Assembly (NCBI RefSeq): GCF_009912395.1
Contig: NZ_WNDO01000024.1
Span: 1-64,000 of the forward strand
Direction: 5' to 3'
DNA length: 64,000 nucleotides
Source: Luteibacter sp.
GTDB lineage: Bacteria > Pseudomonadota > Gammaproteobacteria > Xanthomonadales > Rhodanobacteraceae
The notes below the pieces were generated by a model. It saw only the letters and a program-made list of their open reading frames with translations, was not told the origin of the DNA and ran no database searches. Of the stretch, positions 9,032 to 53,310 are shown piece after piece (within the stretch, counting starts at the first letter, position 1; every line of letters begins with the position of its first letter). The position numbers and the translations under genes are program-made.

Positions 9032-10285
9032 TCACGGCGGCGGGTGCGATCCCGGCAGATCGGGAAGCACCCAGCCGCCGTCGCGGTCCTCTTTGGAAAA
9101 ACGGGCGATCAGCTCAGGGATGCGCAGGCGTGTGGCCAGTCCAGCCAATGTGAGCAGCACGCCGACACCTGTTTTCGTCCTCGGCATGCCCAGGCGCAAC
9201 AGCCCGGTTTTCACCGCCTGGATCTCGTCGACGAAGGGGCGCAACGTCGTCTCGTAACCGGCGAAGGCTTCGACGTGATTCCCGGCATGACGTGCGATCT
9301 CCGACGCCAGCACATACGCGCCGACCAGGCCGCCCGAGATGCCCATGCCGCTGAAGGGCGACGCGCAGTGGGCGGCATCGCCGACTAGCACGACCCGTCC
9401 CTTGTGCCAGTGGTTCGCACGCACCTGCACCACTTCCTGGGAATAGAAATTGGGTGTGTTCGCCATGCCGTCGATGAATCGTTCCATCTGCCAACCGGCA
9501 TTGCGGAAACGGCTGGCCCAGAACGCCTGCTGGTCCTCAACCGATGCCCGATGGATGGACGAGGCCTCGTCGGAGCTTTCGCGAAGGATGAAGTAGACCT
9601 GCGTGTCGGTGGCGTTATGGCTACGCCGCATGACCATCCGTCCACCGGGTGCGATATACGTCTGCCGAAGCCTGCCGGCGTCGGCATCGGTGCGCGGTAT
9701 AAACCAGTACGCCATGTGGATGCCCATGCGCAGGTACGGCTCCGGCGCATCGGGCGGCAGGATGCTTCGGCGGATACGCGAGCCCTGTCCATCGGCTCCG
9801 ACCAGCAGGTCGAACGTGTCCGATGTGCCATCGGAGAAATGGGCCGTCACGCCATGTTCGTCCTGCGCGATGCGCTCGACGGATGTCCCGAAATGGTAGG
9901 CCACGTCATCCCGCGTGGCGTCGTGCAGGATGCGCACCAGGTCGCCACGCATGATCTCGTACTCGGACGTGAGCGATTGCGCGCCGTGGCCGGAGCGGTT
10001 GGCCAGGATGGTCGCTCGCGTGCGTCCCCGAGCATCGACGAACGCCACGCCGTCCTCGTCGACGAGGTGGCGCCGCACCGTATCGAGCAGCCCCATGCGT
10101 CGGATCGCCTCGATGCCTTGCCCGCGAAGGTCCACCTGGGCGCCGGTGGCTCGCAGGGCGGGAAAGCGCTCGACCACGACGACCTGATAGCCGGCCCTGG
10201 CGAGCCACCAGGCCAGGGCGGGTCCGGCGATGCCACCGCCACAGATGAGGATACGAAGGGGGCGCGGGTAGCTCGGGACCGACAT
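9032..10285 (-). CDS. FAD-dependent monooxygenase, TetX/PHBH-like
   Basis: This 417-residue class A flavoprotein monooxygenase has the ADP-binding GGGIAGPALAWWLARAG near residue 15, the R-G-DLVRIL motif that contacts the flavin and NADPH, VGADGQGSRIR, and GDAAHCASPFSGMGISGG. The same architecture is seen in TetX tetracycline monooxygenases and in many antibiotic- or aromatic-hydroxylating enzymes. The substrate is not predictable. Its promoter has the layout of a tetA promoter: TTGACA abutting the first of two tetO-like dyads (see 10294-10345), with the ATG at 10285 a few bases after the second. No tetR gene adjoins it. It is convergent with oleate hydratase. Confidence 0.88.
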   Translation of the reverse strand: MSVPSYPRPLRILICGGGIAGPALAWWLARAGYQVVVVERFPALRATGAQVDLRGQGIEAIRRMGLLDTVRRHLVDEDGVAFVDARGRTRATILANRSGHGAQSLTSEYEIMRGDLVRILHDATRDDVAYHFGTSVERIAQDEHGVTAHFSDGTSDTFDLLVGADGQGSRIRRSILPPDAPEPYLRMGIHMAYWFIPRTDADAGRLRQTYIAPGGRMVMRRSHNATDTQVYFILRESSDEASSIHRASVEDQQAFWASRFRNAGWQMERFIDGMANTPNFYSQEVVQVRANHWHKGRVVLVGDAAHCASPFSGMGISGGLVGAYVLASEIARHAGNHVEAFAGYETTLRPFVDEIQAVKTGLLRLGMPRTKTGVGVLLTLAGLATRLRIPELIARFSKEDRDGGWVLPDLPGSHPPP

Positions 10286-10293
10286 GGGAACAC

Positions 10294-10345
10294 CAATCTA
10301 TCAATGATAGGGAGTCGAGAAGACTTCCCTATCATTGATAGATTG
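10294..10345. promoter_or_regulatory. Double tetO-like operator in perfect 20-bp inverted arms
   Basis: Two 20-bp arms are exact reverse complements separated by 12 bp. Each arm holds a 13-bp dyad, CTATCAATGATAG (10298-10310) and CTATCATTGATAG (10329-10341), with centres 31 bp apart. The second matches the core of Tn10 tetO1, and TCCCTATCA also matches tetO2. Tn10 operator centres are 30 bp apart. The pair occupies the promoter of the FAD monooxygenase gene read leftward. Confidence 0.85.
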
Positions 10346-10349
10346 TCAA
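10344..10349 (-). promoter_or_regulatory. -35 element TTGACA of the monooxygenase promoter
   Basis: On the minus strand TTGACA overlaps the outer edge of the right-hand tetO-like arm by 2 bp, exactly as in the Tn10 tetA promoter. A -10 about 17 bp on would fall at AAGTCT, which is a weak match. A repressor bound to this arm would cover the promoter. Confidence 0.6.
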
Positions 10350-10373
10350 GGCAGAAGGCGTTTCGTTCGGGCT

Positions 10374-10790
10374 CTAGGCGGGGCCGCGCCCATCGAATTC
10401 GGCTCTCGCTGCCTCCACGCGTCGACGGTTGTCGACGGCCCACCGCGCCAGGTCGCCGACTGGTGGAAGAACGTCCTTGCCCAGGGCGGTCAGCTCGTAA
10501 TCCACGCGTGGCGGAATGGTTGGCGTCACCGTGCGCAGGACATAGCCATCGCGCTCGAGCCCCCGCAGCGTGGACGTAAGCACCTTCTGGGAAATGGCGC
10601 CGAGGCTGCGCTTCAGTTCGGTGAAACGCATGCTGCCCTGGGCAAGCATGGCGATGGTCAGCAGCGACCACTTGTCGCCTACGCGCGCGAGCACGTCGCT
10701 GACGGACTGGCATATCTCCGTGGGCAACTGACCGAAGTGGGTCGCGCACTGCGGTTCGGCAGGCACCTTGGGGTGGGTCGGTTTCTTCAA
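10374..10790 (-). CDS. HxlR-family transcriptional regulator
   Basis: This 138-residue one-domain winged-helix regulator has the HxlR signature: a Cys near the start (EICQSVSDVLARVGDKWSLL), FTELKRSLGAISQKVLTSTLRGLERDG and the wing YELTALGKDVL. Family members often sense electrophiles or aldehydes through that Cys. The start is read as TTG 10790 because AGAAGG lies 5-10 bp upstream; a GTG further up is the alternative. It is divergent from the extended SDR at 10869, and an inverted repeat between them is a likely operator. Its 3' end is 28 bp from the tetO-like pair. Confidence 0.88.
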   Translation of the reverse strand: MKKPTHPKVPAEPQCATHFGQLPTEICQSVSDVLARVGDKWSLLTIAMLAQGSMRFTELKRSLGAISQKVLTSTLRGLERDGYVLRTVTPTIPPRVDYELTALGKDVLPPVGDLARWAVDNRRRVEAARAEFDGRGPA

Positions 10791-10833
10791 AGTGCCTTCT
10801 TGTGGGGCAGTGGCGGTCACCCACAGTATCTCA

Positions 10834-10848
10834 GTATCCAAGGGATAC
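10834..10848. promoter_or_regulatory. Candidate HxlR operator GTATCC-AAG-GGATAC
   Basis: This perfect dyad with 6-bp arms lies in the divergent hxlR/SDR spacer, with an extra half-site AGTATC just before it at 10825-10830. Dyads built on GTATCC/GGATAC are a common HxlR-type recognition pattern. The site would let one repressor control both genes. Confidence 0.55.
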
Positions 10849-10868
10849 CAAAGAGGCGGTGATCGATC

Positions 10869-11909
10869 GTGAGCGATATCGAGGGCGAGAACGTGGTGCT
10901 GGTGACGGGGGGCTCGGGTTACCTGGCGGGCTGGATGATCGTGGGCCTGCTGCGCAAGGGATTTTCCGTGCGGACCACGCTGCGCGAGCTGGGCAAGCAA
11001 GCGGTGGTGAGAGGCGCCATCGAGAAGCAGGTCGGGGGCGTGGGCGATCGCCTGTCGTTTGCCAAGGCCGATCTGCTGCGCGACGAGGGCTGGATGCAAG
11101 CGGTGCAGGGATGCCGTTACGTGGTGCATGTGGCGTCGCCGATGGGGCAGGCAGATCCCAAGGGAACGGATCTCGTCGGCCCGGCGCGCGAAGGTACGCT
11201 GCGCGTACTCAAGGCCGCCTCGGCGAGTGGGGTGGAACGCGTCGTCTGTACCTCGTCGGGCTTCGCCGCGCAGGCACGTACCGTGCGCGGTGGGATGCAG
11301 CCGGTGGCGGACGAGACGACATGGACCGATCCCGACGAAAAAGGCATCGGTGAGTACGCAAGATCGAAGATCCTGGCCGAACGTGCGGCATGGGCCTTCA
11401 TCCGTGACGATACGTCGGGGATGACACTCTCCACGATCCTGCCGGGCTTGATCCTCGGCGGGGCGATGACCAAGACGGTATCGCCATCGCTGGAGATCGT
11501 GGCGAGGCTGCTTGCCGGCAAAGTCCCCGCGTTGCCGCACGTCGGCTTCTGCATGACCGATGTGCAGGATCTCGTCGAGTTGCATATCCGTGCGATGACG
11601 AGTCCCGACGCGGCCAACCAGCGCTTCATCGGTGTCGGCGATTTCCTCTGGTTCAGCGAAATCGCGGAAGCCTTGAAAAAAGCCTTTCCCGATCGTTCGG
11701 CTCGCATTCCGACGAAGCGCGTCCCCAGCTGGCTCATGCGTCTATCCGCCCTGTTCAAGGACGAAGCCCGTTTCATGCTGCCGATGCTGGGCATCCGGCG
11801 GGAGTTCGACGCGAGCAAGGCCGCGATGCTGCTGCAATGGACGCCTAGGCCCTCTCGCGACGCGGTGGTTCGATGCGCGACGAGCCTGATCGACCGCGGA
11901 TTGGCTTGA
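10869..11909 (+). CDS. NAD(P)-dependent extended SDR (dihydroflavonol/cinnamoyl reductase-like)
   Basis: This 346-residue extended short-chain dehydrogenase/epimerase-family protein has the Rossmann motif VTGGSGYLAG at residues 11-20, VHVASPMG, a Ser pair in VCTSSGF, and the catalytic YARSK. The match is best to bacterial relatives of dihydroflavonol-4-reductase that reduce carbonyl groups of aldehydes or ketones with NADPH; the true substrate is unknown. The start is GTG 10869 after GAGGCGG. It is divergent from HxlR, which suggests induction by a reactive carbonyl or quinone. Confidence 0.88.
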   Translation: MSDIEGENVVLVTGGSGYLAGWMIVGLLRKGFSVRTTLRELGKQAVVRGAIEKQVGGVGDRLSFAKADLLRDEGWMQAVQGCRYVVHVASPMGQADPKGTDLVGPAREGTLRVLKAASASGVERVVCTSSGFAAQARTVRGGMQPVADETTWTDPDEKGIGEYARSKILAERAAWAFIRDDTSGMTLSTILPGLILGGAMTKTVSPSLEIVARLLAGKVPALPHVGFCMTDVQDLVELHIRAMTSPDAANQRFIGVGDFLWFSEIAEALKKAFPDRSARIPTKRVPSWLMRLSALFKDEARFMLPMLGIRREFDASKAAMLLQWTPRPSRDAVVRCATSLIDRGLA

Positions 11910-52644: not shown

Positions 52645-53310
52645 CTACCCGGCGGGCGGTGGCGCCAAGCCGTGCCGCAGCAACGCCAGCGCGTGCCGCG
52701 TGATGTCCTCGGGCGTGATGTGGCCGCGCAGCGGGTCGCCCTTCCAGCGGCGCATCGCCGTCATGGGAAACACCGTGAGGCTCAGGATGCTGGTGGTGAT
52801 CAGGCAGGGATCGAGGTCGGGATTGAGTTTGCCCTCGCTTTGCCACCCACGGATCTGCTCCATCATGCGGTTGTGCTTGCTGCCGTCGATGCGGGTGCGC
52901 ATGTGCTGCTTGAACAGGTCGTTCTCGCTCAGCAGGTCGCCGAAGAACACGGGGCCCACCCACGGTTGCTCGATGGACAGCTCGACGAAGCGCTCCGCCA
53001 GCATCGTGAAGGCGGCGACCGGGTCGTTCGCGTTGGCCTGGAAGATGCCTTCGATGCGCGTGCGCATCGGTCCGATGTGCTCGTCGAAGATCGCGTCGAA
53101 AAGCTGCTCTCGGGTCTTGAAGTAGTAGTGCACGGCGGCCGGCGTCATGCCGGCCTCGCGGGCGACGGCGGCCAGCGTGGTCGCGACGTAGCCTTGGCGG
53201 GCGTAGAGCTGGAGGGTGATGCCGACCAGGCGCTCGCGCTGGTCCGGGCCGTCTGGCTGGGCCGGGGGGCGGCCGGGGCGGCGCCCTCGGCGGGGAGTGG
53301 AACTGACCAC
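52645..53310 (-). CDS. TetR-family transcriptional regulator of the adjacent MFS exporter
   Basis: About 221 residues. An Arg/Pro-rich N-terminal tail (RRGRRPGRPP) precedes the HTH (LYARQGYVATTLAAVAREAGMTPAAVHYYF), and a helical ligand domain follows. GTG 53310 is preferred since GGAGA lies 5 bp upstream; a GTG at 53349 is the alternative. It is divergent from an MFS multidrug exporter, the standard repressor-pump pair, and an imperfect dyad lies over the pump's start of transcription. Confidence 0.88.
   Translation of the reverse strand: MVSSTPRRGRRPGRPPAQPDGPDQRERLVGITLQLYARQGYVATTLAAVAREAGMTPAAVHYYFKTREQLFDAIFDEHIGPMRTRIEGIFQANANDPVAAFTMLAERFVELSIEQPWVGPVFFGDLLSENDLFKQHMRTRIDGSKHNRMMEQIRGWQSEGKLNPDLDPCLITTSILSLTVFPMTAMRRWKGDPLRGHITPEDITRHALALLRHGLAPPPAG

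What the first reader, a model, noticed from the sequence alone, without database searches (positions are those of the whole stretch)
10294..10349. Tn10-like tet promoter/operator in front of a TetX-like monooxygenase, with no tetR beside it
The sequence shows two exact 20-bp inverted arms, each with a CTATCA-N-TGATAG dyad, 31 bp centre to centre, with TTGACA abutting the outer one and the ATG just after the inner one. This is nearly the layout of the Tn10 tetA promoter (centres 30 bp apart, TTGACA abutting O1), as known from that system. A tetR would be expected across the operator. Instead the 3' end of an HxlR gene lies 28 bp away, reading toward the operator. I infer that a TetR-type repressor acts from elsewhere or was lost, leaving a constitutive promoter.
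Basis: partly seen in the sequence, partly recalled or inferred. Interest (0 to 1): 0.75.

Follow-up and report, generated by a model that had tools for sequence, protein, structure and literature searches.

The report
Tet operators without an adjacent repressor
A gene for a tetracycline-destructase-like enzyme lacks the repressor gene that sits beside it in most examined relatives but keeps a perfect pair of tet operators, and the only other place in this genome with the same operators is a tet repressor and tetracycline-pump pair, so one repressor probably now controls both.

Summary
Two exact CTATCA-N-TGATAG dyads lie 31 bp apart in 20-bp inverted arms, with TTGACA beside the outer one, ahead of a class A flavin monooxygenase. 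In 74 of 80 relatives read (the best 80 of 111) a divergent TetR lies across the same region, its start codon a few bases from TTGACA. In the window that TetR is missing up to the edge of the -35, and an hxlR gene stands upstream.

In the 5.39-Mb genome the core CTATCNNNGATAG occurs at four places: these two, and two between a divergent tetR and a Tet(A)/(B)/(C)-type efflux gene on another contig. That locus is collinear in a congener, so it looks resident. The monooxygenase has a strong match only in this genome among 398 of the order, and nests among alphaproteobacterial genes, so it looks acquired.

Best explanation: an acquired monooxygenase without its own TetR is repressed in trans by the resident tetracycline-type TetR, giving one regulon of efflux plus flavin oxidation. 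Binding, induction and substrate are not shown. HxlR control is unlikely; constitutive expression remains possible.

The parts
9032..10285 (-). FAD-dependent class A monooxygenase, 417 aa, downstream of the operators
   Evidence: Pfam FAD_binding_3 98.3 bits; NCBIfam tet_destruct 216 bits, below its cut-off of 550; 80 relatives read, most 64-73% identical
10298..10310 (.). inner tet-type operator dyad CTATCAATGATAG (arm 10294-10313)
   Evidence: conserved as the inner dyad in relatives
10329..10341 (.). outer tet-type operator dyad CTATCATTGATAG (arm 10326-10345)
   Evidence: conserved as the outer dyad in relatives
10344..10349 (-). TTGACA, probable -35 of the monooxygenase promoter
   Evidence: read; TTGACA within 9 nt upstream of the first dyad in 63 of 73 relatives with a dyad
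10321..10326 (-). AAGTCT, candidate -10, 17 nt from TTGACA, weak
   Evidence: read; the promoter scan found no match
10374..10790 (-). hxlR-type regulator gene, 138 aa, upstream in the same direction, in the place where relatives carry a divergent tetR
   Evidence: Pfam HxlR 87.8 bits (on a slightly longer reading); place matched at 10377-10790
10834..10848 (.). inverted repeat GTATCCAAGGGATAC between hxlR and the epimerase; possible HxlR site, not conserved in the two nearest hxlR loci read
10869..11909 (+). NAD-dependent epimerase-like gene divergent from hxlR, the more likely HxlR target
   Evidence: Pfam Epimerase 53.7 bits; inference from gene order

Best explanation
The monooxygenase came into this lineage with its own promoter and two tet-type operators but stands here without the divergent tetR that normally overlaps that promoter. 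The host already had a chromosomal tetR beside a Tet(A)/(B)/(C)-type efflux gene with the same operator core. I infer that the resident TetR binds both operators, blocks the monooxygenase promoter, and lets go when it binds Mg-tetracycline, so that efflux and a flavin monooxygenase form one two-locus regulon run in trans. Shown: the anatomy; the usual presence and the absence here of a linked tetR; the exclusive sharing of the operator core with the resident tetR-tet locus; that locus's collinearity in a congener; the isolated occurrence of the monooxygenase. Inferred: transfer, binding, repression, induction, substrate.
For: Linked divergent TetR in 74 of 80 relatives with conserved dyads and TTGACA. 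CTATCNNNGATAG at 4 places in the genome, two here and two at C13 tetR-tet; with one mismatch 36 sites against 54 for the control and no third close pair. The C13 MFS passes the Tet(A)/(B)/(C) model, 484.8 against 475; the C13 TetR's best PDB match is class A TetR, 169.4 bits, and it keeps H64, N82, F86, H100, T103, R104, P105, E147. The C13 locus is collinear in G004. Strong monooxygenase match only in the own genome among 23 of the genus and 398 of the order; it nests with seven alphaproteobacterial loci, support 0.97. An 18-bp stretch, ATCTATCAATGATAGGGA, is identical between the window arm and one C13 arm; the AAT/ATT centre is at both window sites, one of two C13 sites and both G004 sites but at 0 of 143 sites beside linked TetRs. 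All six relatives without a TetR hit lack the dyad, so keeping it without a linked TetR is unusual.
Against: No binding data. The C13 TetR has R-S at positions 37-38 where the 74 linked TetRs have E/Q-Q, so its affinity for this site is not certain. It scores 244.2, below the 265 cut-off of the TetR model. The operator centre match may be a single event or come from an unsampled donor. No base-composition break marks the monooxygenase (GC about 0.65, like its flanks), so transfer rests on distribution and tree alone. The -10 is poor.
Confidence: 0.62

Rival explanations
1. Relic operator: the linked tetR was lost on transfer or later, nothing binds the dyads, and the monooxygenase is expressed constitutively from TTGACA or by read-through from hxlR.
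For: No linked tetR and no remnant near the operator; no terminator between hxlR and the monooxygenase; a single genome, so the age of the loss is unknown.
Against: Both dyads are exact and the arms are 20 of 20 complementary, against at most 18 of 20 in 67 relatives; a TetR with the same operator core is in the genome.
Confidence: 0.22
2. HxlR control: the neighbouring HxlR protein binds the dyads and governs the monooxygenase.
For: Adjacency and shared direction.
Against: The dyads are conserved beside TetR genes; of 80 relatives an hxlR hit occurs in one (L044), about 1 kb beyond the monooxygenase. The two nearest hxlR genes in the family, G011 and G232, lie divergent from other redox-type genes (named by eye) and show no such dyad in the intergenic stretch read. 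In the window the divergent epimerase is the natural target.
Confidence: 0.05
3. RNA hairpin: the 20-bp inverted repeat acts in hxlR read-through RNA as a stem-loop ahead of the monooxygenase start.
For: The minus-strand RNA folds at -49.7 kcal/mol, z -5.74, 0 of 200 shuffles as stable; perfect arms.
Against: Any exact inverted pair of operators folds so. RNA from the gene's own promoter would lack the outer arm (inference). No terminator-like site.
Confidence: 0.08

Closest known systems
Tn10-type tetR-tetA regulation (details recalled)
   Same: Paired CTATC-N3-GATAG operators about 30 bp apart, TTGACA beside the outer one, TetR_C_1 repressor with conserved pocket residues in the genome.
   Different: The target here is a monooxygenase and no tetR lies across these operators; the tetR with this operator core is on another contig.
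MabTetRx-MabTetX of Mycobacterium abscessus (PMC6143652, section 8 read; original paper not held)
   Same: A flavin monooxygenase repressed by a TetR-family protein through a tetO, induced by tetracycline.
   Different: There the repressor gene is the adjacent upstream gene of the same operon with a 35-bp operator; here it is missing and the supposed repressor is unlinked. MabTetX was not aligned here.
Linked TetR-monooxygenase pairs of the 74 relatives (named; one such Streptomyces pair is recalled as a tetracycline-inducible promoter source, paper not held)
   Same: Same monooxygenase family, same operator pair and -35.
   Different: TetR linked and divergent; its pocket lacks H64 in 74 of 74 and has R104 in 9 of 74.
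Tetracycline destructases Tet(50)-Tet(56) and Tet(X)
   Same: Same class A monooxygenase superfamily; best PDB matches are Tet(51) and Tet(56), 191 and 189 bits.
   Different: Far below the curated cut-offs (216 of 550; 54.7 of 750); 6-hydroxynicotinate 3-monooxygenase chains score about as well (188 bits).

Membership tests
tet operator pair of the tetR/tetA kind | two CTATC-N3-GATAG dyads about 30 bp apart overlapping the promoter | tested here: met
   31 bp apart
tet operator pair of the tetR/tetA kind | divergent tetR across the operators | tested here: not met
   hxlR stands there; no TetR match near it
tet operator pair of the tetR/tetA kind | bound by a TetR and released by tetracycline | not testable with these tools
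   a candidate TetR with the same operator core exists at C13
Tet(A)/(B)/(C) efflux locus at C13 (partner, outside the window) | MFS over the curated cut-off with a divergent TetR_C_1 repressor and paired operators | tested here: met
   484.8 against 475; TetR_C_1 73.8 bits; dyads. The TetR itself is below its own model's cut-off (244.2 of 265)
tetracycline destructase (NCBIfam tet_destruct, Tet(X)) | score over the curated cut-off | tested here: not met
   216 of 550; 54.7 of 750
tetracycline destructase (NCBIfam tet_destruct, Tet(X)) | oxidises tetracycline | not testable with these tools
   needs an enzyme assay

The most novel reading that the evidence does not exclude
Regulatory capture with a change of signal: an acquired monooxygenase, once governed by a TetR cousin whose pocket lacks H64 and mostly R104 (so probably another Mg-chelating inducer), lost that repressor at the edge of its -35 and was taken over by the host's tetracycline-type TetR through a shared operator, the operator centre having come to match the resident sites and both copies having become identical. 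The enzyme thereby became tetracycline-inducible without gaining a regulator gene.
Probability: 0.33. Interest if true: 0.65.

Novelty: new variant of a known kind. Interest (0 to 1): 0.5.

Why it matters
TetR and its operator are usually met as one unit. Here the sequence suggests that the operator travelled with a gene while a resident repressor adopted it, a simple and testable route by which an acquired gene joins an existing antibiotic-responsive circuit. It also warns that the lack of a repressor next to a gene need not mean constitutive expression.

Tried and rejected
TetR remnant: tblastn of 75 TetRs (the C13 one and the 74 linked ones) against the window gave one weak hit, at 53068-53241, far from the operator; rejected. 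Another unlinked cognate TetR: PF02909 finds three genes in the genome; the C34 and C42 proteins match the linked TetRs less well (best 83 and 44 bits against 164 for C13), and the C34 gene has a different dyad nearby, TTATCACTGATAA; other TetR subfamilies were not searched for. A second operator locus in relatives: of 22 relatives asked for, 21 were held (L027 was not); 20 of 21 have the strict core; besides the monooxygenase loci there are 11 further sites, none of them a close pair; I read six of the 11 and found no TetR, monooxygenase or efflux match beside them (a seventh locus read was itself a monooxygenase locus). More TetRs of the R-S type: 369 genomes of the class gave only the own one at E <= 1e-35 (the congener G004 was found otherwise), so any link between R-S and an A/T centre rests on two genomes. 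Plasmids: 635 records matched the monooxygenase, none at 80% identity or more. Papers: eight searches ran; in their listings I saw no operator of this kind served by an unlinked TetR, but only titles and abstract starts were seen for most, and most subscription journals are not held. Read in part: PMC6143652 (passages and section 8), PMC10944477 and PMC2949611 (passages). PMC5971581 and PMC1140374 are not held. The genus name used was my guess and comes from no call. No structure was predicted.

Full report
Observation. The window has two exact CTATCA-N-TGATAG dyads at 10298-10310 and 10329-10341 inside 20-bp inverted arms. On the minus strand the order is TTGACA, outer dyad, inner dyad, ATG of a 417-aa FAD monooxygenase. 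An hxlR gene ends 28 bp upstream, reading the same way.

What relatives show. A scan of one genome per species for relatives of the monooxygenase confirmed 111 and kept the best 80 (31 were not kept). In 74 of 80 a TetR reads away from the monooxygenase just upstream. Of these 74 loci, 73 have at least one dyad of the relaxed form C[TA][TA]TC-N3-GATAG (143 sites in all; L011 has none) and 26 have two or more strict CTATC-N3-GATAG sites. First and second sites lie 30-32 bp apart in 59 of 67 loci with two or more. TTGACA lies within 9 nt upstream of the first site in 63 of 73. The typical stretch begins with CAT or CAC, the start codon of tetR on the other strand (start codons picked by my script), then a base or a few, then TTGACAATCTATC or close to it. 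In the window the likeness begins at TTGACA; upstream there is no start codon and no TetR, so the tetR is missing right to the promoter edge. The six loci without a TetR hit also lack this dyad. In five of them, all actinobacterial by title, another TetR_N protein lies downstream and a TTACT...AGTAA-type repeat lies ahead of the gene. The sixth, L005, has response-regulator genes nearby.

The genome as a whole. CTATCNNNGATAG occurs at four places in 5.39 Mb, the control at one: two here and two at C13:100392-100440 between a divergent tetR and an MFS gene. The MFS passes the Tet(A)/(B)/(C) efflux model (484.8 against 475); the TetR scores 244.2 against a cut-off of 265. With one mismatch there are 36 sites against 54 for the control and no third close pair, so near matches are background. 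The C13 locus is collinear with one in the congener G004, where two dyads are also present; exact CTATCANTGATAG dyads occur in 2 of 23 genomes of the genus. The monooxygenase has a strong match only in the own genome: of 23 in the genus four others match at 31-36% identity, and of 398 in the order, the own one included, no other passes E 1e-140. In a midpoint-rooted tree of 81 it falls with seven alphaproteobacterial loci, support 0.97. In G004 the place between the oleate-hydratase-like and AraC-like genes (names by eye) holds another AraC-like gene and a 40% identical epimerase, with no monooxygenase or hxlR match. Base composition shows no break, so acquisition rests on distribution and tree.

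The repressor. The C13 TetR keeps T27, R28, P39, Y42, W43, H44 and K48, but has R-S at positions 37-38 where the linked TetRs have E (73 of 74) and Q (74 of 74). In the pocket it has H64, N82, F86, H100, T103, R104, P105 and E147, with K at 116. The linked TetRs keep H100 and E147 in 74 of 74 but have A at 64 in 67 (H in none) and R at 104 in 9 (residue labels and roles are recalled, the numbering was carried over from the class A chain). If the resident TetR has taken over, the signal may have changed too.

The operator centre. The middle three bases are AAT/ATT at both window sites, at one of two C13 sites (the other is GAT/ATC) and at both congener sites, and at none of 143 sites beside linked TetRs, of which 6 have A or T in the middle. 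Fisher tests give 1e-4 for the triplet and 0.003 for the centre base, but they overstate the case: the sites are related by descent, and the two window sites are identical copies and perhaps one event. The window arm differs from the outer arm of L008 (Hyphomicrobium) at one base, the centre, and from one C13 arm at two outer bases.

Against my reading. Nothing here shows binding, and the R-S change lies in the DNA-reading helix. The -10 is poor and the scan found no promoter. The symmetry of the arms could have arisen by hairpin-templated copying, and a hairpin in read-through RNA is possible. The enzyme is far below the destructase cut-offs, its best-scoring NCBIfam model is another FAD-binding family (PRK07588, 244.1 against 454), and its best PDB matches mix tetracycline destructases with 6-hydroxynicotinate monooxygenases. 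The substrate is therefore open.

Known ground. A flavin monooxygenase repressed by an adjacent TetR and induced by tetracycline is described for M. abscessus (PMC6143652, section 8). The kind is known; what seems new is the separation of operator and repressor and the apparent adoption by a resident tet locus. The eight paper searches that ran did not list such a case, which is weak evidence given the library's limits.

Noticed in passing
L009, L010, L017, L020, L050, just upstream of the monooxygenase: Five relatives without the tet dyad carry a TTACT...AGTAA-type repeat (or a one-base variant) ahead of the gene and a TetR_N protein downstream: a second, different TetR-type control of the same enzyme family.
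   Followed up: partly
window 10294-10345: The two operator arms are exact inverted copies over 20 bp; in 67 relatives the best is 18 of 20, and the RNA folds into a strong hairpin.
   Followed up: partly
window 9032-11909 against G004:C14 (L118:4935-6999): Within an otherwise collinear gene row the slot between the oleate-hydratase-like and AraC-like genes (names by eye) holds different genes in the two species.
   Followed up: partly
L008:5993-7255 (-): In Hyphomicrobium a Tet-like MFS gene (49% identical to the C13 one over 347 aa) lies downstream of the tetR-monooxygenase pair.
   Followed up: no
window 10834-10848: Inverted repeat GTATCCAAGGGATAC between hxlR and the epimerase, a possible HxlR site; not seen in the two nearest hxlR loci read.
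   Followed up: partly
L001:2198-2210: TTATCACTGATAA, a tet-like dyad with changed outer bases, between another TetR_C_1 gene (C34) and a divergent dipeptidase-like gene (named by eye).
   Followed up: no
L003:2203-3363 (+): The third TetR_C_1 gene (C42) lies divergent from and overlapping an FAD monooxygenase-like gene (named by eye), without a tet dyad.
   Followed up: no
L031 and L038, upstream of the monooxygenase: Three tet-type dyads instead of two in these two Winogradskya loci.
   Followed up: no
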